Assembly: GCA_946482295.1 (NCBI GenBank)
Contig: CAMLRB010000175.1
Coordinates: forward strand, 1 to 7,376
Source: an uncultured Bacteriovorax sp.
Lineage (GTDB): Bacteria > Bdellovibrionota > Bacteriovoracia > Bacteriovoracales > Bacteriovoracaceae
DNA length: 7,376 nucleotides
Direction of reading: 5' to 3'
In this document: positions 1-7,376 of the stretch, in pieces
Layout of the letters: every line of letters starts with the position of its first letter
How positions within the stretch are numbered: the first letter of the stretch is position 1
Notes under the pieces: model-generated
Seen by the model: only the letters and a program-made list of their open reading frames with translations
What the model was told of the DNA's origin: nothing
Database searches by the model: none
Translations under genes and position numbers: made by a program

Positions 1-293
1 CAGCAGTTTCTCAATGGCATTTAGACGCTATGACTGAGCATTTTAACCTAACATCTTACTTTGAAGCTCGCTTCGGAGTTAATGATCATTATGCATCCAG
101 CAAGTTAGAGCGTGGGCGAGAACTGATGAGTTTTGCCAATATATCAACAGAAAAAACTTTGTTGATTGGCGATACAATCCATGACTTTGAAGTTGCTTGC
201 CAATTAAAAGTTGATTGCCTATTGATTGCTGATGGTCATCAGTCGAAAGAGCGCCTACTGCAAGTCACCTCAAATGTCGTTTCTAGAGCGTAA
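1..293 (+). CDS. HAD-superfamily phosphatase, C-terminal part (5' end outside window)
   Basis: This is the 3' end of a phosphatase-like gene. The frame is open from base 3 to the TAA at 291-293, with no stop upstream, so the in-frame ATG at 30 is internal and about 96 residues are visible. The segment LLIGDTIHDFEVA carries the GD...D acidic motif IV of HAD hydrolases, which binds Mg2+. The upstream SSKLERG lysine fits motif III, and the following DCLLIADGHQSKERLL is typical of phosphoglycolate-phosphatase-like (HAD subfamily IA) enzymes. The N-terminal DxD nucleophile motif lies outside the window, so activity and substrate cannot be judged. The gene converges on and overlaps the DUF924 gene by 24 bases. 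It shows no link to the isonitrile genes and is probably the ordinary flank of the locus. Confidence 0.85.
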   Translation, partial: AVSQWHLDAMTEHFNLTSYFEARFGVNDHYASSKLERGRELMSFANISTEKTLLIGDTIHDFEVACQLKVDCLLIADGHQSKERLLQVTSNVVSRA

Positions 294-815
294 CGGAAAA
301 CACTTAAACTGCTGAATCATTAATTTATGCTCCAAGGCTTTCTCTAGAGCTAAATGAGTCCAGTTTTTAATGGCTTCTGGTGCACACTCATGCAGTTTAC
401 TAAATTTCACAACACTTAGATTTTGCAGAACGATGTCTTCAGCATGTTCGAGCGGCAAATAAAGAAAAATTTTTTGAGGAAGTGTGAGTTCGTGTTCACG
501 ATAAGTTCCTAAGGCCATGAGACAAAGATTTTGAGCATAACGATCGTAAGCATATGCTTGAGACGAACCTCTAAAAGAGTTGCGAGGTATTTGATCGAGT
601 AAAAGAATAAGTGACAAATACTGAGATGTAGAAAGCCTATCCGCTTGTTCTAAAAGTTCTAAAGCATGATGAAGTAAGGGAGTAAATTCACGGCATTCAT
701 TATCAAAAATCGTATCATGTCCAAAGAACCATTGAGGTACTTTACGCGAGAAATAAGAGTCATCAATTTTTATTTCATCGAACCAAAAGTGATGAAGATG
801 ATCAAGATCTAACAT
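270..815 (-). CDS. DUF924 family protein with a short C-terminus
   Basis: This 181-residue protein belongs to the DUF924 family (all-helical, TPR-like, function unknown). Family hallmarks are the N-terminal HHFWFDE, then PQWFFGHD, the central LLLDQIPRNSFRGSSQAYAYD, and FLYLPLEHAEDI. The C-terminal H-x-x-x-I-x-x-F-x-x-FP pattern is present, but the usual FPHRN-x-x-LGR ending is replaced by FPLRSRNDI and a stop, so roughly 15-20 residues of the family tail are missing. I chose the ATG at 815, directly before the conserved HFWF block, with a weak GGGAT upstream. A TTG at 842 would add nine non-conserved residues. The start lies inside the last 14 bases of the glycosyltransferase gene, which suggests translational coupling. 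The 3' end overlaps the convergent HAD gene. Whether it acts in the isonitrile pathway or is only a neighbour is unknown. Confidence 0.85.
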   Translation of the reverse strand: MLDLDHLHHFWFDEIKIDDSYFSRKVPQWFFGHDTIFDNECREFTPLLHHALELLEQADRLSTSQYLSLILLLDQIPRNSFRGSSQAYAYDRYAQNLCLMALGTYREHELTLPQKIFLYLPLEHAEDIVLQNLSVVKFSKLHECAPEAIKNWTHLALEKALEHKLMIQQFKCFPLRSRNDI

Positions 816-2019
816 CTGATTTATCCCGAATATAGTTAACAATTCCTTCTAAACCATTAAGTTTTGAAAAGTGATTTTTCATTAATAGCAGATTTTTTGC
901 CAACAATTTATCAGATGAAACTTTAGTAATGGCATCACGAATAAGTTCTGCTGTTAAGTCATGTTTTTTTAGTTGATGGCCTAAGTTTAAATCCACCAAT
1001 CTCTGAGCATTAACAAATTGATCATGAGCATGGGGAATGGTGATGATCGGAACTCCAAGTGCAAGTGCTTCATTCACACTGTTCATGCCACCATGGTTAA
1101 TAAAAATATCAGTGAGTTTTAAGACTTCTTTTTGAGGAATTTTCGGAAAAAGATGGATATGAGAGGGAACTTTTCCAAGACTTTGAACATTCTCCTCTGA
1201 TCCAACGGAAAGAATAAGCTGAAAATTTGTATCTTCTAAAAAAGCTTCAATCAGTTTTTTAAATAAGTTTATTACGTGGGGATTTTCCTTGGGGAGAATT
1301 GTTCCCATGGCCATAGTAATGACTTTTTTTTGGTCTTTTTCAAAGATTGAGAATGGAAACCAATCCTGAAGTTCTATGCTATCAAGCATTGAACCAGCGA
1401 AATGAAAATGTTTATCGTTTTCTACATCTATCTCTGGGTTAAATTCTTTAGAAGTAAAAACAATATTATGCTTACCGTATGCACCTAAAGCATCTTCAAG
1501 TTTTAGTAAAATATTAAATTTGTTTCGTAAATGTGAGATGGCCATTTGATTGGTGTGATCGATTTCAACATGATGTTGTTTCAACATTTCCTGTTTTTTA
1601 TCGAGAGATAGTGCAAAGGTTGAAACTGTGCAAAAGCTGGGAATTCGATAAATCTCTCCTAGTACATACCCCCAAGGTGCCATTGAATCGTAAAGAATGA
1701 AATCAGGCTTTATTCGCTCTATTTCTTCTTGAAGAAAGGGAAGGAGACCAACGGTCGCCGGTATAGTTTGTAAGACGAAATTTTTTCCTGGGTTAAAATC
1801 AGCGGCCTTATACTCATCATAACCGTAATTGATAAAGTGCGCTCCGGTTGATTGTATCAATTCCTTTCTATCGGGGGAGCTATGGTAAAATATTTGGACT
1901 CCTTGATCACACAAAACCTTCACGAGAGGGAGTGTTGGGTTAATGTGTCCGAGTCCAAATATATTGTAGAAGATTGCTTTCACCTGATGGAAGCTATCAC
2001 AGACTGGATATAGATCCAT
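802..2019 (-). CDS. GT1 / macrolide-type UDP-sugar glycosyltransferase
   Basis: This 405-residue GT-B glycosyltransferase resembles the MGT/UGT family, whose members move a sugar from a nucleotide sugar to a small lipophilic acceptor in the cytoplasm. The N-terminal domain starts with KAIFYNIFGLGHINPTLPL, where His25 is the likely catalytic base, paired with Asp111 in LYDSMAPWG. The C-terminal donor domain has ITMAMGT (235-240) and the family signature INHGGMNSVNEALALGVP (307-324), ending in HDQFVNAQR (332-340), where the Asp-Gln pair contacts the sugar. Length is normal for the family. The ATG at 2019 has no clear ribosome site. A GTG at 1983 giving VKAIFYNIF would match the usual family start better, so the first 12 residues are uncertain. 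The gene follows lysR by 38 bases and overlaps DUF924. Rhabduscin-type loci also pair isnA/isnB with a glycosyltransferase, so it may glycosylate the isonitrile product (inference). Confidence 0.9.
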   Translation of the reverse strand: MDLYPVCDSFHQVKAIFYNIFGLGHINPTLPLVKVLCDQGVQIFYHSSPDRKELIQSTGAHFINYGYDEYKAADFNPGKNFVLQTIPATVGLLPFLQEEIERIKPDFILYDSMAPWGYVLGEIYRIPSFCTVSTFALSLDKKQEMLKQHHVEIDHTNQMAISHLRNKFNILLKLEDALGAYGKHNIVFTSKEFNPEIDVENDKHFHFAGSMLDSIELQDWFPFSIFEKDQKKVITMAMGTILPKENPHVINLFKKLIEAFLEDTNFQLILSVGSEENVQSLGKVPSHIHLFPKIPQKEVLKLTDIFINHGGMNSVNEALALGVPIITIPHAHDQFVNAQRLVDLNLGHQLKKHDLTAELIRDAITKVSSDKLLAKNLLLMKNHFSKLNGLEGIVNYIRDKSDVRS

Positions 2020-2040
2020 TTAATAATTTTTAACGATGGT

Positions 2041-2056
2041 ATAGGTAAAAACCTAT
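2041..2056. repeat. Perfect inverted repeat ATAGGT-AAAA-ACCTAT between lysR and the glycosyltransferase
   Basis: Two exact 6-base arms flank a 4-base spacer. The repeat starts one base after the lysR stop codon on the - strand and about 21 bases before the glycosyltransferase ATG. It could be an operator for the adjacent regulator. In the - strand transcript it would form a 6-bp UUUU-tetraloop hairpin. There is no U-run after it, so it is not an obvious terminator. An 8-base part of it (- strand CATAGGTT) recurs upstream of lysR at 2892-2899. Confidence 0.55.
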
Positions 2057-2057
2057 G

Positions 2058-2882
2058 TTAATGAACTACTGGTATAAAAGATTTTTTTAACTCTTCGAAT
2101 ATTAACTTACCTTCTTTGGACTTTATAATCTCGGGGTAGCAAACTAGCGCCAATCGATCTTTATAGGTAGGTGTACCGGAAACTTTATGAAGTCCCAAAC
2201 GCTGGGCCTTGACGACCTGTGAAGGAAGAATTCCTATACCCGCCCCGGAGTCCACTAAATTGGCAATTAATTCAAGATTAGAAACCTCAATTCTGTCTTC
2301 CGGAGCATTTTTCCATCGAGCTAAAATTCCTGAAGTTTGCATCATATCTGGGTTGTAGATCAGCCTCTTACTATAACGTTTACTAGATTCCCAAACCGCT
2401 ACTTCGTCATCACCAATCAACTTCGTGATGAGCCCAGGTATAGGAAGCGGATTCATAACGAGACCAAAGTCAATCTCACCTTGGGCCACTTTTTTATTAA
2501 TTTCGCTCGAGGATCCATTAACTATTGTGAGATCGATGTTGGAAGAATACTGATGCATTGATTTCAAAAAACGCCCCAGCAGAAACATGCCGACAGATGG
2601 GTGACAGCCAATCTTGAAAGAAAGATTGGTTGGAGCACCTTTAATCTTAAAAAGTAATTTAAGTGCACCTTGTGCTTCTGGCAGGATAATACGTCCTTGA
2701 GGAGTGAGCTTTATTCCATTTCTGCTGCGAATAAAAAGCGGTAAGTTTAACTCTTTTTCTAGCTTTTTAATGGCCAGGGATAATGAAGGTTGTGCCATTT
2801 GTAGTTTTTCTGAAGCTTCTGAGAGTGTTTTCGAGTGGGCTACAGCAATAAAGTTCTCTAGATCTTTGAATGTGATGGACAT
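2058..2882 (-). CDS. LysR-type transcriptional regulator, divergent from isnA
   Basis: This 274-residue LysR-family DNA-binding regulator has an N-terminal winged helix-turn-helix at about residues 1-62. The recognition region is SEASEKLQMAQPSLSLAIKKLEKELNLPLF (21-50), followed by the wing RNGIKLTPQGR. The remainder (about 85-270) is the periplasmic-binding-protein-like effector domain, with GCHPSVG at its start, VAQGEIDFGLVM in the middle and VDSGAGIGILP near the end. It is slightly shorter than the usual 290-310 residues. The ATG at 2882 has an AGG about 11 bases upstream. LysR genes usually control a divergent neighbour and themselves, and in Pseudomonas aeruginosa LysR-type proteins control the pvc genes. 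It therefore probably regulates the isnA operon and perhaps its own downstream glycosyltransferase. The effector cannot be predicted. Confidence 0.93.
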   Translation of the reverse strand: MSITFKDLENFIAVAHSKTLSEASEKLQMAQPSLSLAIKKLEKELNLPLFIRSRNGIKLTPQGRIILPEAQGALKLLFKIKGAPTNLSFKIGCHPSVGMFLLGRFLKSMHQYSSNIDLTIVNGSSSEINKKVAQGEIDFGLVMNPLPIPGLITKLIGDDEVAVWESSKRYSKRLIYNPDMMQTSGILARWKNAPEDRIEVSNLELIANLVDSGAGIGILPSQVVKAQRLGLHKVSGTPTYKDRLALVCYPEIIKSKEGKLIFEELKKSFIPVVH

Positions 2883-2941
2883 ATAGCTTTTAACCTATGC
2901 TAGTTATTGTTTATATATAATTTTTAAATGATTAGTTCTCC

Positions 2942-2967
2942 TTTATCAATAACAAAGTGTTTATCAA
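2942..2967 (+). repeat. Direct repeat TTTATCAA x2 upstream of isnA
   Basis: Two identical 8-base copies, starting 18 bases apart, lie 22-47 bases before the isnA ATG, downstream of the candidate -10. Their position suits a regulator site or a leader element, but AT-rich repeats of this size can arise by chance. Confidence 0.4.
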
Positions 2968-2974
2968 GACTTTG
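2953..2974 (+). repeat. Inverted repeat CAAAGT-N10-ACTTTG in the isnA leader
   Basis: Two exact 6-base arms with a 10-base spacer end just before the AAGGAG ribosome site of isnA. In RNA this would be a modest hairpin next to, but not covering, the ribosome site. As DNA it could be an operator half-site pair. It interleaves with the TTTATCAA direct repeat. Confidence 0.4.
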
Positions 2975-2988
2975 CTGAAGGAGAAATT

Positions 2989-3930
2989 ATGACAACACTA
3001 CAGATCGAAAACAATAATGAAATTTCAACAAATGCAATGTCTATTGCTTTTAAAGCGTTAGCAGATCTTTCGAATCAAGAAAAAAGCATTGAAACATTTT
3101 TAGATATTCCTATTATGCGAAAAATGGCTGATCAAATGATAGAGAGAAAAACTTTGCAGTTTCTTCTTCCTGCCTTTCCGGCCAAAAGCCCCAGCACTCA
3201 CAAAACGGCCGGTATACATCCCGATTTAGGCGAAGTTATAGCATTAAACAATTTGAATGAAATGTGTAAAAAAATTTCTCAAGTTTATGAGCCCGGCGCA
3301 GAGGTCATTATTTGTTCAGATGGAAGAATCTTTAGTGACGTGGTCATGGTGCCTGATGAGGCCATTGATGAGTACTCTGAATGGATTAAAAATATTATCA
3401 TTGAATTCAACTTGGACCATCTTTCAACTTTTGCCATGGATGACCTTTACCGCGAACTTAAAGGGCCAGAATTGAGAGAGCGTCTTATTTGGCAATATGC
3501 TAAGTCAGCGGAAGAAATTCGTTACTTAGTAGCTAACGACGAAGATTTTAGAAGTCTCTTTAATGGTGTACATAAATTCATGATTGAAGATCAAATGGGA
3601 CTAACGGAAAACTTTGGTGCAAGTAAAAATCAGATTAACAAAAAAACGAAGCCTCTGACTTATGAGTTATTGAGAAGATCAGATGCCTGGTCTCAGCTAT
3701 TACTCGATCATTTTGACGATGCCCTTCGATTGTCTATTCATGCTTATCCACTGACACATGAAAAGTTCGGCGTGAAACTTGTGAAATCATCAGAAAGATG
3801 GGCGACTCCCTGGCACAATGTTACGGTAAAAAAAGAAAATACATTTGAACTAATGCATTTATCAGAAGCTCTTAAATTAGGCGCGCAAAAAGTAGTGTTT
3901 CAGGAGAAGTATGTTTATTTTGAAGTCTAA
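2989..3930 (+). CDS. isnA: Isonitrile (isocyanide) synthase, IsnA/PvcA family
   Basis: This 313-residue cytoplasmic enzyme matches the DIT1/PvcA family. Characterised members convert the amino group of tyrosine or tryptophan to an isonitrile, taking the carbon from ribulose-5-phosphate. Family blocks appear in order: LPAFPAKSP (60-68), PDLGEVIALNNLNEMC (78-93), the signature ICSDGRIFSD (108-117), FNLDHL (140-145), LRLSIHAYP (246-254) and WATPWHNVTV (271-280). Length is close to the usual 320-330, with no missing block. The start is fixed by AAGGAG five bases upstream. It leads a three-gene operon, and its last 20 bases contain the start of isnB. Tyrosine or tryptophan as the substrate cannot be decided by eye. 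Confidence 0.95.
   Translation: MTTLQIENNNEISTNAMSIAFKALADLSNQEKSIETFLDIPIMRKMADQMIERKTLQFLLPAFPAKSPSTHKTAGIHPDLGEVIALNNLNEMCKKISQVYEPGAEVIICSDGRIFSDVVMVPDEAIDEYSEWIKNIIIEFNLDHLSTFAMDDLYRELKGPELRERLIWQYAKSAEEIRYLVANDEDFRSLFNGVHKFMIEDQMGLTENFGASKNQINKKTKPLTYELLRRSDAWSQLLLDHFDDALRLSIHAYPLTHEKFGVKLVKSSERWATPWHNVTVKKENTFELMHLSEALKLGAQKVVFQEKYVYFEV
3902..3906 (+). promoter_or_regulatory. Ribosome site that fixes the isnB start inside isnA
   Basis: AGGAG stands four bases before the ATG at 3911, within the last codons of isnA. A TAG in the isnB frame at 3893-3895 closes any longer reading, so this site decides the start and suggests translational coupling between the two enzymes. Confidence 0.75.
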
Positions 3931-4585
3931 TATGCATCTCACCGATGCAGAACTGCTAAAGCTTGCCGGTGAATTCAGTGATAAACCGGACGCAAACGTG
4001 CAGGAAAAATTTCTGCATTGGGATTTTGGTCCCATTATGAATATGAAGTTTGATCCGGAAGCACCTAATTATCTTTTTTCAGCGGAAGCCGTTCCCTTGC
4101 ATTGGGATGGAGCTTTTTATAAAGAGCCACGCCTGCTCCTTTTTTACTGTACGGAAACTGATGGTGAAGGTGGAGAAACGCTATTTTTGAACACCGAGCT
4201 TTTGTGGGCGTCCCTCACAGATGAAGAAAAAAGCGAGTGTGAAAAAATCACTCTTCGCTATACCACTGAGAAGAAAGCTCATTACGGCGGACAGATTACA
4301 GTTCCCATGGTGCAGAAACATCCGGTAACGGGAGCAACCATTTTAAGAATGGCCGAAAGAGTAGAGACGATGTTGAATCCAGTATCTCTGGAAATTCTGG
4401 GAGCTAGAGATCCGGAAGACTTTTATCTGCGCATAGTGGAGAAACTCAAGTCAGAAAATTTTCTGACTGTCCATAAATGGAAAAAAGGTGATGTCGTGAT
4501 TTGTGACAACTTTACTTATCTCCATGGAAGAAACGCGCTTAGAAACAATTTAGTTAGATCATTTAAACGAATACAAATTCTTTAG
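3911..4585 (+). CDS. isnB: Fe(II)/2-oxoglutarate oxygenase, IsnB/PvcB family (short N-terminus)
   Basis: This 224-residue TauD-fold oxygenase is the usual partner of isonitrile synthases. Relatives oxidise the amino-acid isonitrile, often with decarboxylation to a vinyl isonitrile. The metal triad is visible as H64-x-D66 in VPLHWDGAF and H205 in DNFTYLHGR. R216 is the likely 2-oxoglutarate carboxylate ligand, 11 residues after the distal His. Other family blocks are HWDFGPIMNMKFDPEAPNYLF (36-56), GEGGETLFLNT (85-95), AHYGG (123-127) and KKGDVVICDN (191-200). PvcB-type proteins usually run about 280-300 residues. Here the first ~50 residues are absent and the protein opens at MFILKSNMHLTDAELL, the equivalent of the LLLLRGF strand. 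An in-frame stop 16-18 bases upstream shows that this is not a miscalled start. All catalytic residues remain. The gene ends 7 bases before the P450. Confidence 0.93.
   Translation: MFILKSNMHLTDAELLKLAGEFSDKPDANVQEKFLHWDFGPIMNMKFDPEAPNYLFSAEAVPLHWDGAFYKEPRLLLFYCTETDGEGGETLFLNTELLWASLTDEEKSECEKITLRYTTEKKAHYGGQITVPMVQKHPVTGATILRMAERVETMLNPVSLEILGARDPEDFYLRIVEKLKSENFLTVHKWKKGDVVICDNFTYLHGRNALRNNLVRSFKRIQIL
4449..4468. repeat. Perfect 20-bp palindrome inside isnB
   Basis: AGTCAGAAAA is followed directly by its exact reverse complement TTTTCTGACT, with no spacer. It lies within codons for KSENFLT of isnB. It could be a dyad protein site or an intragenic hairpin. By a simple estimate a perfect 20-bp palindrome is rare in a window this size, though AT-rich coding DNA makes it less surprising. 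Confidence 0.6.
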
Positions 4586-4592
4586 GAGCATT

Positions 4593-5822
4593 ATGAAAAC
4601 GGCACAAGGAACTTCATTTCTTGATTTCAAAAAGAGCAGCAATGTTTCCGATTTTCCGGAGTCGTTTGCCGCTTACATCAAATCTTATGGAGACATCTAC
4701 TTCTGGGAGAAAGGAAATTTTCATGTTGTGACGAAAGCCTCTGATGCTAGAGAAGTACTCACTTCGTCTCATTTCAGTGCAGACAGAGGAGCTTTTTTTA
4801 TCTCTCGCATGCCGCAGATGGATCTCAGTCTCATTCAAGATTTTTTCGGTGTTGTAAAAAAAATGATGGTGATGAGTGATGACGGTGACCACGCCAAAAG
4901 AAGAAAGATTGCTGCCGGAGGTTTTGAAGATCACGTTCTCGAGCGATTTACAAAAACAGTTCAGGCGACAGTGAAAAGAATTGTCAACGAAGTAAAAAAC
5001 AAAGATCAGTTTGAGTTTGTTGAGGCCATTAGCAAAAAATTACCTTCTACTGTTTTAGCCGATCTCTTTAGCATTCCTGAATCAGACAGAGAAAATTTCT
5101 TCAATTCGGCCAACATTATGACTGGCTTTTTTGGAGGGGCCAGCAGTTACCAAAATGCTGATGGCATTGAAGTCAACAATGCGGCGAAATCTCTTAAAGC
5201 TTATTTCGAGAAACTCATCGAAGAACGCAGAGGAGGAAAAGGCGAAGACTACGTTTCTATCCTGCTGAGAGCGCAGCCGGTGAGCGGACTTTCTGATGAA
5301 GAACTGATCTCGCAATTGATTATGATGTTGGTTGCCGGTCAGGTGACGACGACTGATCAAATTAACAATATTATGTTTTTACTCGCGAAACATCCTTCAC
5401 TTCAAAGCGACATTAGACAAAATATGGAACTTCTTCCCAATGCGCTTGAAGAATTAAAACGTTTTGATCCTGCCGTTACATTTATTTTCAGAGTGGCTCG
5501 CGCTGACACTATGATTGGTGAACAGCCGATTAAAAAAGACGATGTTATTTTTATATCTACTCATTGTGTGAATCGCGATCTGCCAGCTGAGGAAAATCCT
5601 CTGGAGATCGATATCAATCGCAAGAGTTCTCACTTTGCATATGGGCATGGACCACACTACTGCTTAGGAGCAAAACTGGGGCGACTTGAAATTCGACTTT
5701 TATTTGAGGAGCTTTTAAGAGAGCTTCCGGTGTTGGAACTCGATAGAAAAAAAGAGTCGAAAAGAGATCATTACTCACTCTCATTTTCGGGTTTTGAAAT
5801 ATTACAGTTGTCTAAAATCTAG
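4593..5822 (+). CDS. Cytochrome P450, tailoring enzyme of the isonitrile operon
   Basis: This 409-residue soluble bacterial class I-type P450 has no membrane anchor. Landmarks are the C-helix DGDHAKRRKIAAGGF (97-111), I-helix MMLVAGQVTTTDQI (244-257), ExxR pair E287/R290 in the K-helix, and haem loop FAYGHGPHYCLGA (348-360) with C357 as the thiolate ligand. Two key positions are unusual. The I-helix acid before Thr252 is Val251 (AGQVTT instead of AGx[D/E]TT), and the Phe seven residues before the cysteine is Tyr350. AGGAG at 4584-4588 overlaps the isnB stop and sits four bases before the ATG, so it is cotranscribed and probably coupled. No ferredoxin or reductase gene is in the window, so redox partners must come from elsewhere. 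P450s act in some isonitrile pathways, for example fungal xanthocillin clusters. Hydroxylation, coupling or another oxidation are all possible here. Confidence 0.95.
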   Translation: MKTAQGTSFLDFKKSSNVSDFPESFAAYIKSYGDIYFWEKGNFHVVTKASDAREVLTSSHFSADRGAFFISRMPQMDLSLIQDFFGVVKKMMVMSDDGDHAKRRKIAAGGFEDHVLERFTKTVQATVKRIVNEVKNKDQFEFVEAISKKLPSTVLADLFSIPESDRENFFNSANIMTGFFGGASSYQNADGIEVNNAAKSLKAYFEKLIEERRGGKGEDYVSILLRAQPVSGLSDEELISQLIMMLVAGQVTTTDQINNIMFLLAKHPSLQSDIRQNMELLPNALEELKRFDPAVTFIFRVARADTMIGEQPIKKDDVIFISTHCVNRDLPAEENPLEIDINRKSSHFAYGHGPHYCLGAKLGRLEIRLLFEELLRELPVLELDRKKESKRDHYSLSFSGFEILQLSKI

Positions 5823-5917: not shown

Positions 5918-7376
5918 ATGAAAAAGTTAATAGCAGCTTTATTCTTTTTTCTGCCATTCACATTGATGGCCGAGAGTCTCGATGTTGATCAACTTTCTAA
6001 ATCTATTGTGAATCATAGAGAAAAAGCAATCAACCTCAATGATGTTGTTAAAAATGGTGATCATTTTCAAAAAATGCGAAAGAAAGAAAAAATCACTGCT
6101 TTAACAAACGACGAACGACAGGTTCTTCGTGAAACTTGGTTTCAACTTCTCACTCATCATGCCTCTCTTAATGAAATTATCATAGATATGGATAAAAGAT
6201 TAAAAGATGAGAATGATGCTTTCTTAAAAGAAGATTACTTTACACTAATGTATTCGGCATATATGGCCCAATATAGAACGGGAATTGAATTTATCCGTGC
6301 AATGAGAACCGTTCCAACGGCGGACACTGTTCTCAATGAAAAGTTTGAAGAATTAGGACTTGAACGGCAATCATTCGCTGATTTTAAGTTTGAATATTTG
6401 AACATTCAAAAATTTACACAATACTCAGGACATAAGCTCGCTTCGTTAAGTCAGAAGAATGAACAGTCACTTCTTAATGACGGAATCAATGAGGATGAAG
6501 ATTACATTGATCAGTTTAATCGTTATAAAGGAACTATTTATACAATTAAGAATGCCGGAAAAATTTCCGGTCATATTCTCTTCAAACTTTATTTCCCTAT
6601 TCAGAAAGCGATTTCAGAGTGGATGGGGGATGAACGCGTGGCACGCGGAAATGAATTTCTCATTTCTGATGAACAGATTAAAACAATTCACAAAAAATTA
6701 AATCCAGGTGACGTCCTTATCGAAAGACGTGAATGGTACTTATCGAATATCGGTCTTCCTGGCTTTTGGCCGCACGCTGCCCTTTACATTGGTCGCCCGG
6801 AAGAAAGAAAGGAACTCAATGAAGATGCAGAAGTCATCGCTTGGGTTAAATCAGAAGGAATTGAAAGCGGAAGTTTTGAAGAACTGCTTGAAGCAAAATA
6901 TCCAGCTGTTTACAAAGAAAGTTTAGGGGCAGATGAAACCGCTCACGACTATCGCGTTCTCGAGGCCATGAGTGAAGGAGTAGTCTTCACTAGTTTAGAG
7001 CACTCTGCAGATGCTGATTCACTAGCGGCCATTCGTCCACGACTCTCAAACGTCGATATTGCTAAAGGCCTCTTGACGGCGCTAAAATACAAAGGCCGTC
7101 CGTACGACTTCAACTTCGATTTCCGCACTGACGCCGAAGTTGTGTGTTCAGAACTCGTTTTCTACGCTTACCAGCCGACTAAAGACAAAAAAGGGATTGA
7201 TTTCCCGGTAACGACAACACTAGGTCGTCCTGTTGTAACTCCGAATAACATCATCAAAGAGCTTGCTGAAACGTACGGGACGGACCGCCAACAGTTTGAT
7301 TTGATTGTCTTTTTAGACGGGAATGACAAAAAGAGAGAAGCCGTGTTTTCGGACATGGAGAACCTTAAAACGACTT
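5918..7376 (+). CDS. Exported YiiX/C92-type permuted NlpC/P60 cysteine hydrolase (3' end outside window)
   Basis: The frame is open from the ATG at 5918 to the window edge (486 residues). MKK plus a hydrophobic run ending FTLMA-ES is a Sec signal peptide with likely cleavage after Ala18. There is no lipobox cysteine, so a periplasmic or secreted product is likely. Residues about 20-255 are mainly helical and charged, and I do not recognise them. The rest resembles the permuted papain-like YaeF/YiiX (C92) family: LNPGDVLI (261-268), then FWPHAALYIG with the catalytic His286, then VVCSELVFYAY with the nucleophile Cys410. Relatives are thought to act on amide or ester bonds in lipid or cell-wall substrates, and the actual substrate here is unknown. 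The signal peptide fixes the start. It is separated from the P450 by 95 bases and a hairpin, so it is probably not part of the isonitrile pathway. Confidence 0.88.
   Translation, partial: MKKLIAALFFFLPFTLMAESLDVDQLSKSIVNHREKAINLNDVVKNGDHFQKMRKKEKITALTNDERQVLRETWFQLLTHHASLNEIIIDMDKRLKDENDAFLKEDYFTLMYSAYMAQYRTGIEFIRAMRTVPTADTVLNEKFEELGLERQSFADFKFEYLNIQKFTQYSGHKLASLSQKNEQSLLNDGINEDEDYIDQFNRYKGTIYTIKNAGKISGHILFKLYFPIQKAISEWMGDERVARGNEFLISDEQIKTIHKKLNPGDVLIERREWYLSNIGLPGFWPHAALYIGRPEERKELNEDAEVIAWVKSEGIESGSFEELLEAKYPAVYKESLGADETAHDYRVLEAMSEGVVFTSLEHSADADSLAAIRPRLSNVDIAKGLLTALKYKGRPYDFNFDFRTDAEVVCSELVFYAYQPTKDKKGIDFPVTTTLGRPVVTPNNIIKELAETYGTDRQQFDLIVFLDGNDKKREAVFSDMENLKTT
6555..6570. repeat. Inverted repeat CCGGAAA-AA-TTTCCGG within the C92 gene
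   Basis: Two exact 7-base arms flank AA inside codons for AGKISG. It may be chance or a protein site, and no neighbouring gene start gives it an obvious role. Confidence 0.4.

What the first reader, a model, noticed from the sequence alone, without database searches (positions are those of the whole stretch)
802..5822. Isonitrile locus combining isnA-isnB-P450 with a divergent lysR-glycosyltransferase-DUF924 arm
IsnA and IsnB are recognised by their full sets of family motifs, and the P450 is tightly coupled to them. Known relatives carry different tailoring sets: flavin hydroxylases in pvcABCD, a glycosyltransferase in rhabduscin-type loci, and a P450 in fungal xanthocillin clusters. Here a P450 and a GT1 enzyme occur together around one LysR regulator. 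This suggests an oxidised or coupled, possibly glycosylated, aromatic vinyl isonitrile that may not be described. The product, and whether GT and DUF924 belong, are inference.
Basis: partly seen in the sequence, partly recalled or inferred. Interest (0 to 1): 0.78.

Follow-up and report, generated by a model that had tools for sequence, protein, structure and literature searches.

The report
Isonitrile gene cluster, Bacteriovorax-like bacterium
This DNA carries a six-gene cluster, probably from a relative of the predatory bacterium Bacteriovorax, that very likely makes a modified isonitrile compound, and comparing it with relatives ties a protein family of unknown function (DUF924) and a sugar-adding enzyme to that pathway.

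Summary
The genes are as described: isnA-isnB-P450 on + and lysR-GT1-DUF924 on -. The arms belong together. (1) A 16-bp site, ATAG-N8-CTAT, lies between lysR and isnA and again before GT. It precedes 3 of 3 such divergent GT genes, Peredibacter starrii's P450 gene 590 kb from isnA, and isnA of Bdellovibrio kdesi, but 0 of 230 other upstream regions. (2) DUF924 copies at seven isn-P450 loci form one group apart from 16 ordinary DUF924s (100/99); one MAG fuses IsnA to DUF924 and IsnB to P450. (3) Bdellovibrio kdesi and a family member have isnA-isnB-P450-GT with a distant GT1. GT and DUF924 are accessories, seen in 5 and 7 of 22 isn-P450 genomes; a GNAT-like gene is in 7. IsnB shares its pocket signature with tryptophan-pathway (wel) enzymes, not with tyrosine-type PvcB/PIsnB, so the product may be indolic. 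Product and DUF924 function are unproven. isnAB-P450 is already reported in Legionella (PMC5126622). A new variant of a known kind.

The parts
270..842 (-). isn-type DUF924 protein (TTG start at 842; a likelier ATG at 815), overlapping the GT gene's end
802..2019 (-). GT1 (MGT-like) glycosyltransferase
   Evidence: Pfam/NCBIfam (MGT 231.5 bits, cut-off 260); 68 close relatives at 43-58% identity, then a drop to about 32%; H25 and D111 invariant in 26 aligned
2041..2056 (.). operator-like site, copy 2, ATAGGTAAAAACCTAT, 21 bp upstream of the GT start codon
   Evidence: also before the GT in B. antarcticus and G104
2058..2882 (-). LysR-type regulator of the locus
   Evidence: Pfam HTH_1 + LysR_substrate; orthologues (370-523 bits) divergent from isnA at 9 other loci
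2883..2898 (-). operator-like site, copy 1, ATAGGTTAAAAGCTAT, directly before the lysR ATG and 90 bp upstream of isnA
2989..3930 (+). isnA, isonitrile synthase (PvcA/DIT1 family)
   Evidence: Pfam DIT1_PvcA 236 bits; PvcA 3e59 185 bits; 380 relatives, 120 listed
3911..4585 (+). isnB, Fe(II)/2-oxoglutarate oxygenase, short form lacking about 37 N-terminal residues of PIsnB
   Evidence: PIsnB 7tcl 111 bits, PvcB 3eat 81 bits; metal and 2OG ligands invariant
4593..5822 (+). isn-type cytochrome P450 with V instead of D/E at position 251 and invariant T252, D255
   Evidence: Pfam p450 94 bits; one group of 21 isn-P450s against 3 outgroup P450s, 100/100

Best explanation
A LysR-controlled pathway for a tailored aromatic isonitrile. 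Step 1 (by family, strong): IsnA turns the amino group of an aromatic amino acid into an isonitrile, using ribulose-5-phosphate carbon. Step 2 (by family, strong; outcome inferred): IsnB desaturates and probably decarboxylates it to a vinyl isonitrile. Step 3 (inferred): the dedicated P450 oxidises it, by hydroxylation or by coupling of two units. Step 4 (inferred): the GT1 puts a sugar on a hydroxyl. isn-type DUF924 is a dedicated partner of the IsnA/IsnB/P450 part; its chemistry is unknown, and I think a small-molecule or enzyme-partner role beside IsnA most likely, because it can be fused to IsnA. LysR (inferred) binds ATAG-N8-CTAT between lysR and isnA and again before GT, so both arms switch together. 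GT and DUF924 are optional modules on a lysR-isnA-isnB-P450 core; many relatives carry a GNAT-like protein instead.
For: Families. Core: of 129 class genomes, IsnA in 16 and strong isn-P450 in 13, 12 of these among the 16. Site: the pattern taken from the window finds, in B. antarcticus (4.2 Mb), one exact match, upstream of GT, and two one-mismatch matches, one of them at lysR/isnA; in P. starrii one of five one-mismatch matches precedes the unlinked P450. Exact ATAG-N8-CTAT: 3 of 3 divergent GTs, 1 of 1 unlinked P450, 4 of 10 lysRs (4 more with one mismatch, 2 with a half-site only), isnA of Bdellovibrio kdesi, against 0 of 230 other upstream regions. DUF924: seven isn-linked copies split from 16 others at 100/99; in 7 of 22 isn-P450 genomes, at 0 of 59 IsnA loci where no isn-P450 was seen; cNMP-IsnA-DUF924 and IsnB-P450 fusions in L069; IsnB-P450 fusion beside IsnA and DUF924 in L164. 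GT: isnA-isnB-P450-GT operon in kdesi and G158.
Against: No product, expression or binding data. GT and DUF924 are not seen in 17 and 15 of 22 isn-P450 genomes (some on short contigs). The lysR-side site overlaps the ribosome-binding region, so part of its conservation may be translational. ATAG-N8-CTAT is one base longer than the T-N11-A box usual for LysR regulators (recalled). No exact site precedes DUF924 in P. starrii or Parachitinimonas, isnA of G158, G059 or G063, or the G054 P450. Up to two mismatches, sites are no commoner than in the reversed control.
Confidence: 0.72

Rival explanations
1. GT and DUF924 are passengers: the GT is an MGT-type antibiotic-inactivating or general detoxifying enzyme, DUF924 is an ordinary housekeeping protein, and only isnA-isnB-P450 is a pathway.
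For: GT scores near NCBIfam MGT (231.5, cut-off 260). Five Bacteriovoracia genomes have the core without either gene at the locus. DUF924 is widespread (53 of 129 genomes).
Against: Site before 3 of 3 divergent isn GTs, 0 of 230 controls. isn-type DUF924 is a separate group, and Parachitinimonas carries both kinds. IsnA-DUF924 fusion. 22 of 37 GT relatives on contigs of 8 kb or more share their longest-contig length with a listed IsnA or P450 relative.
Confidence: 0.12
2. A rhabduscin/byelyankacin-like tyrosine pathway: tyrosine vinyl isonitrile glycosylated on its phenol, with the P450 adding a minor oxidation.
For: Rhabduscin needs isnA, isnB and a GT (PMC6386379, passages). Two of five diagnostic IsnA positions (I137, V278) and 6 of 20 IsnB positions are of the tyrosine-group kind.
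Against: IsnB has Ala-Phe-Tyr where PIsnB has Met105-Tyr106-Lys107 and Ala at Asn188; changing M-Y-K to A-F-A in PIsnB lost ligand stabilisation (PMC9467999, passages). 17 of 17 isn-P450 IsnBs and 4 of 4 wel-type (Trp) IsnBs share A-F and Ala, 0 of 12 tyrosine-type. In the 129 genomes the P450 is found in more isn genomes than this GT.
Confidence: 0.33
3. A xanthocillin- or dityrosine-like pathway: the P450 couples two isonitrile units, working like fungal XanG or yeast Dit2, and GT or GNAT-like protein caps the dimer.
For: XanG and Dit2 are proposed or shown to couple two tyrosine-derived units beside IsnA homologues (PMC5974471 and PMC7345447, passages). The P450 lacks the usual I-helix acid in 21 of 21, compatible with chemistry other than ordinary hydroxylation.
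Against: No sequence kinship to XanG/Dit2 was tested; the NCBIfam models matched are mostly bacterial CYPs. Loss of the acid does not prove coupling.
Confidence: 0.3

Closest known systems
Legionella isnAB-HTH-P450 cluster (PMC5126622, passages only)
   Same: isnA, isnB, a helix-turn-helix regulator and a P450 together
   Different: No GT or DUF924 mentioned in the passages; its P450 was not compared here
Rhabduscin cluster isnA-isnB-GT (Xenorhabdus; PMC6386379, passages)
   Same: isonitrile synthase, oxygenase and a glycosyltransferase
   Different: No P450 mentioned in the passages; PIsnB, the oxygenase of rhabduscin biosynthesis, has another pocket signature; GT kinship not tested
pvcABCD (paerucumarin, Pseudomonas aeruginosa)
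   Same: IsnA/IsnB homologues PvcA (3e59) and PvcB (3eat)
   Different: C and D are flavin hydroxylases (recalled); PvcB has HWDG-MYL and Cys where this IsnB has HWDG-AFY and Ala
wel/amb/hpi indole-isonitrile clusters of cyanobacteria (PMC4236562, passages)
   Same: IsnB signature A-F and Ala148, IsnA F191/L205/N277
   Different: Those have tandem IsnA and prenyl tailoring, no isn-type P450 in the loci read; IsnA/IsnB fall in other branches
Fungal xan cluster and yeast DIT1/DIT2 (PMC5974471, PMC7345447, passages)
   Same: IsnA-type enzyme with a P450
   Different: Eukaryotic P450s; no GT or DUF924 in the passages seen

Membership tests
Isonitrile synthase family (DIT1_PvcA, PF05141) | profile match over nearly the whole domain, above the curated cut-off | tested here: met
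   236.4 bits against 26.4, positions 7-267 of 273
NCBIfam L-tyrosine isonitrile synthase PvcA (NF045653) | score over the equivalog cut-off of 600 bits | tested here: not met
   194 bits
IsnB/PvcB Fe/2OG desaturases | 2-His-1-Asp metal triad and 2OG/carboxylate arginines | tested here: met
   H64, D66, H205, R216, R220 invariant in 16 of 16; numbering tied to PIsnB and PMC9467999
PIsnB-type (K/R at 107, N/H at 188) | published selectivity residues | tested here: not met
   A148 at the 188 position; at 107 Y70, or K71 if the gap is placed otherwise; the rule is only a forecast in the paper
PvcB-type (L at 107, C at 188) | published selectivity residues | tested here: not met
   Y70 and A148
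Cytochrome P450 | heme-ligand Cys motif and ExxR | tested here: met
   YGHGPHYC357LG and E287xxR290, Cys and ExxR in 17 of 17; Tyr replaces the usual Phe in 20 of 21
Cytochrome P450 with canonical acid-alcohol pair | D/E before the I-helix Thr | tested here: not met
   V, A or I at 251, Thr at 252, 17 of 17; the motif has no acid there in 21 of 21
GT1 / MGT macrolide glycosyltransferase (TIGR01426) | score over subfamily cut-off | tested here: not met
   231.5 against 260 bits; GT1-type Pfam models are over their cut-offs
DUF924 (PF06041) | profile match over cut-off | tested here: met
   117.2 against 27 bits, 3-160 of 180
Rhabduscin/xanthocillin-type pathway | the product | not testable with these tools
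   no chemistry available

The most novel reading that the evidence does not exclude
isn-type DUF924 is a new, dedicated component of a P450 branch of isonitrile biosynthesis spread over several phyla. In Bacteriovorax-like and Bdellovibrio predators this branch makes a P450-oxidised, glycosylated, probably tryptophan-derived isonitrile, in which the P450 supplies the hydroxyl that the GT uses.
Probability: 0.35. Interest if true: 0.82.

Novelty: new variant of a known kind. Interest (0 to 1): 0.62.

Why it matters
It gives a first functional setting to part of DUF924, a family name that no paper in the library searched holds. It names a regulator and its likely site, so the whole gene set can be tested, and it shows an isonitrile P450 branch in relatives of predatory bacteria that my paper searches did not find described (listings and a few passages seen). 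The clade-specific IsnB and P450 residues make substrate choice (Trp or Tyr) and reaction type directly testable.
Full report
WHAT IS THERE. The window holds lysR, GT1 and DUF924 genes on the minus strand and isnA, isnB and P450 genes on the plus strand, all open, each confirmed by Pfam. isnA and isnB overlap, P450 starts 7 bp after isnB, and GT and DUF924 overlap, so each arm looks like an operon. DUF924 lies at 270-842, outside the coordinates given. To the left is a HAD-hydrolase end (3-293; Pfam just under cut-off), to the right a C92-peptidase gene (5918 onward). No genome is held for the window. The nearest named relative is Bacteriovorax sp. PP10 (B. antarcticus; IsnA 74-75%), which also has a HAD gene beyond its GT.

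CONSERVATION OF THE CORE. In 129 genomes of the class of G002 (a Bacteriovoracaceae MAG), PvcA is in 16, a strong isn-P450 (over 560 bits) in 13, of which 12 have IsnA (the thirteenth, G054, has the P450 on a short contig), a strong GT of this kind in 2, and DUF924 of any kind in 53. Four of the 16 IsnA genomes lack a strong isn-P450 (G006, G027, G088, G126). A pattern-limited scan of 84,980 species' contigs gave 72 IsnA loci; 13 of them lie in genomes where I saw an isn-P450 (L001-L008, L014, L015, L017, L064, L069). Further isn-P450s came from the cyanobacterial order of G132 and the phylum of G134 (samples of larger groups) and from the family of Bdellovibrio kdesi. I count 22 genomes: the window, G001-G005, G010, G030, G033, G054, G059, G063, G091, G092, G104, G107, G132, G133, G134, G158, G508, G808. 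Linked GT is in 5 (window, G010, G104, G005, G158), isn-type DUF924 in 7 (window, G104, G107, G001, G132, G134, G808), and a GNAT-like gene right after the P450 in 7 (G033, G054, G059, G063, G091, G092, G107). Of the four of these searched against Pfam only the G107 copy clears a cut-off; the rest are linked to it by sequence, G033 and G054 only weakly. Six have none of the three seen (G002, G003, G004, G133, and G030 and G508 on short contigs).

REGULATION TIES THE ARMS. The window has ATAGGTTAAAAGCTAT directly before lysR (90 bp upstream of isnA) and ATAGGTAAAAACCTAT 21 bp upstream of GT. With up to three mismatches 5 matches were found against 1.33 expected, as many in 3 of 200 shuffles; the pattern came from the window, so the real test is elsewhere. 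In B. antarcticus the only exact match in 4.2 Mb is upstream of its GT, and one of two one-mismatch matches is at lysR/isnA. In Peredibacter starrii the P450 lies about 590 kb from isnA and still has the site 50 bp upstream of its ORF. In Bdellovibrio kdesi the identical palindrome ATAGGTTTTTACCTAT lies 76 bp upstream of isnA, at the head of isnA-isnB-P450-GT, although its LysR is of another kind (133 bits). Exact ATAG-N8-CTAT within 160 bp: 3 of 3 divergent isn GTs, 1 of 1 unlinked P450, 4 of 10 isn lysRs with four more at one mismatch and two (L006, L007) with the half-site only. Of 230 other upstream regions in 14 loci none has it (these controls include a few isn genes). Not found: before DUF924 where GT is absent (L089, L001), before isnA of G158, G059 and G063, and before the G054 P450. 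That LysR is the binder is inference.

GT BELONGS. The GT has 68 close relatives (43-58%), then a gap to about 32%. Of the 37 on contigs of 8 kb or more, 22 share their longest-contig length with a listed IsnA or P450 relative (an indirect sign, and a lower bound as those lists show 120 of 380 and 120 of 684). In Bdellovibrio kdesi and G158 a GT1 of another kind (kdesi's 23% identical to the window's) sits directly after isnA-isnB-P450. The same combination in two arrangements with distant GTs argues for function.

CHEMISTRY. IsnB: all ligands are kept, but where PIsnB has Met105-Tyr106-Lys107 and Asn188, this family has Ala-Phe-(mostly Tyr, His or Leu) and Ala. Changing M-Y-K to A-F-A in PIsnB cost ligand stabilisation (PMC9467999, passages). 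17 of 17 isn-P450 IsnBs and 4 of 4 IsnBs of wel-type loci have A-F and Ala; 12 of 12 tyrosine-type ones have M-Y and Cys or Asn. Of 20 positions separating the two groups the window matches Trp-type at 8, Tyr-type at 6 and neither at 6, and other A-F IsnBs of unknown substrate exist (8 of 8 'other' rows), so this may be an ancestral state. L018 and L021 lie in F. muscicola SAG 1427-1 and Fischerella PCC 9431, whose wel clusters are reported in PMC4236562 (passages); L019 and L023 are assigned by closeness and tandem IsnA. In IsnA, three of five diagnostic positions are Trp-like, two Tyr-like. P450: no acid before Thr252 in 21 of 21, Asp at 255, C-terminal R-x-H-x-S-L-x-F-S-G in 21 of 21, 0 of 3 in outgroups; G158's copy was not checked. 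Its reaction is open.

MODEL. Aromatic amino acid to isonitrile (IsnA), desaturation (IsnB), oxidation or coupling (P450), sugar transfer (GT), with DUF924 as a dedicated partner, under LysR. The first two steps follow from families, the rest is inferred. A vinyl product is suggested by likeness to WelI3, which works on the tryptophan isonitrile (PMC4236562, passages), not by the published PIsnB/PvcB rule, which this IsnB fits in neither form.

LITERATURE. isnAB with an HTH protein and P450 is reported as always together in Legionella (PMC5126622, passages). Rhabduscin needs isnA, isnB, GT (PMC6386379, passages). Fungal XanG is proposed, and yeast Dit2 shown in vitro, to couple tyrosine-derived units (PMC5974471, PMC7345447, passages). 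Searches for isonitriles with Bdellovibrio, Bacteriovorax or Peredibacter, for isonitrile synthase with P450 and GT, and for DUF924 showed no paper describing this set in their listings; the library holds open-licence papers only.

VERDICT. A real, conserved, apparently co-regulated isonitrile locus; a new variant of a known kind, with a newly tied protein family.

Noticed in passing
L069 8699-11434 and 13424-15601: cNMP-binding/IsnA/DUF924 and IsnB/P450 fusion proteins with a second, diverged IsnA-like gene between them.
   Followed up: partly
L164 10851-17853: IsnB-P450 fusion, IsnA, DUF924, a 336-residue gene (looks like a methyltransferase by eye, no family search made) and a second IsnA-like gene in a row.
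   Followed up: partly
L090 8752-9318, L093 12172-12837, L095 6956-7600, L099 1443-2135, L006 12736-13308, L007 12805-13377, L098 1789-2496: A GNAT-like or diverged protein follows the isn-P450 in seven genomes.
   Followed up: partly
L014, 76 bp upstream of isnA (start 9857): The palindrome of the window's GT site recurs before the isnA-isnB-P450-GT operon of Bdellovibrio bacteriovorus kdesi.
   Followed up: partly
L068 9209-12534: TetR-IsnA fusion next to an IsnB-UbiA prenyltransferase fusion in a Bacteroidia MAG.
   Followed up: no
L056 8618-10807: cNMP-binding/IsnA fusion without DUF924 in Sulfidibacter corallicola.
   Followed up: no
window 5918-7375: C92 papain-like peptidase gene downstream; no homologue at the other loci scanned, probably unrelated.
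   Followed up: partly
window 3-293: End of a HAD-hydrolase gene, convergent with DUF924; a HAD gene lies at the same place beyond GT in B. antarcticus (L091 12131-12802).
   Followed up: partly
G010 C2:270387-270402 (L106): One further one-mismatch site, with no isn gene in the 3 kb read around it.
   Followed up: partly
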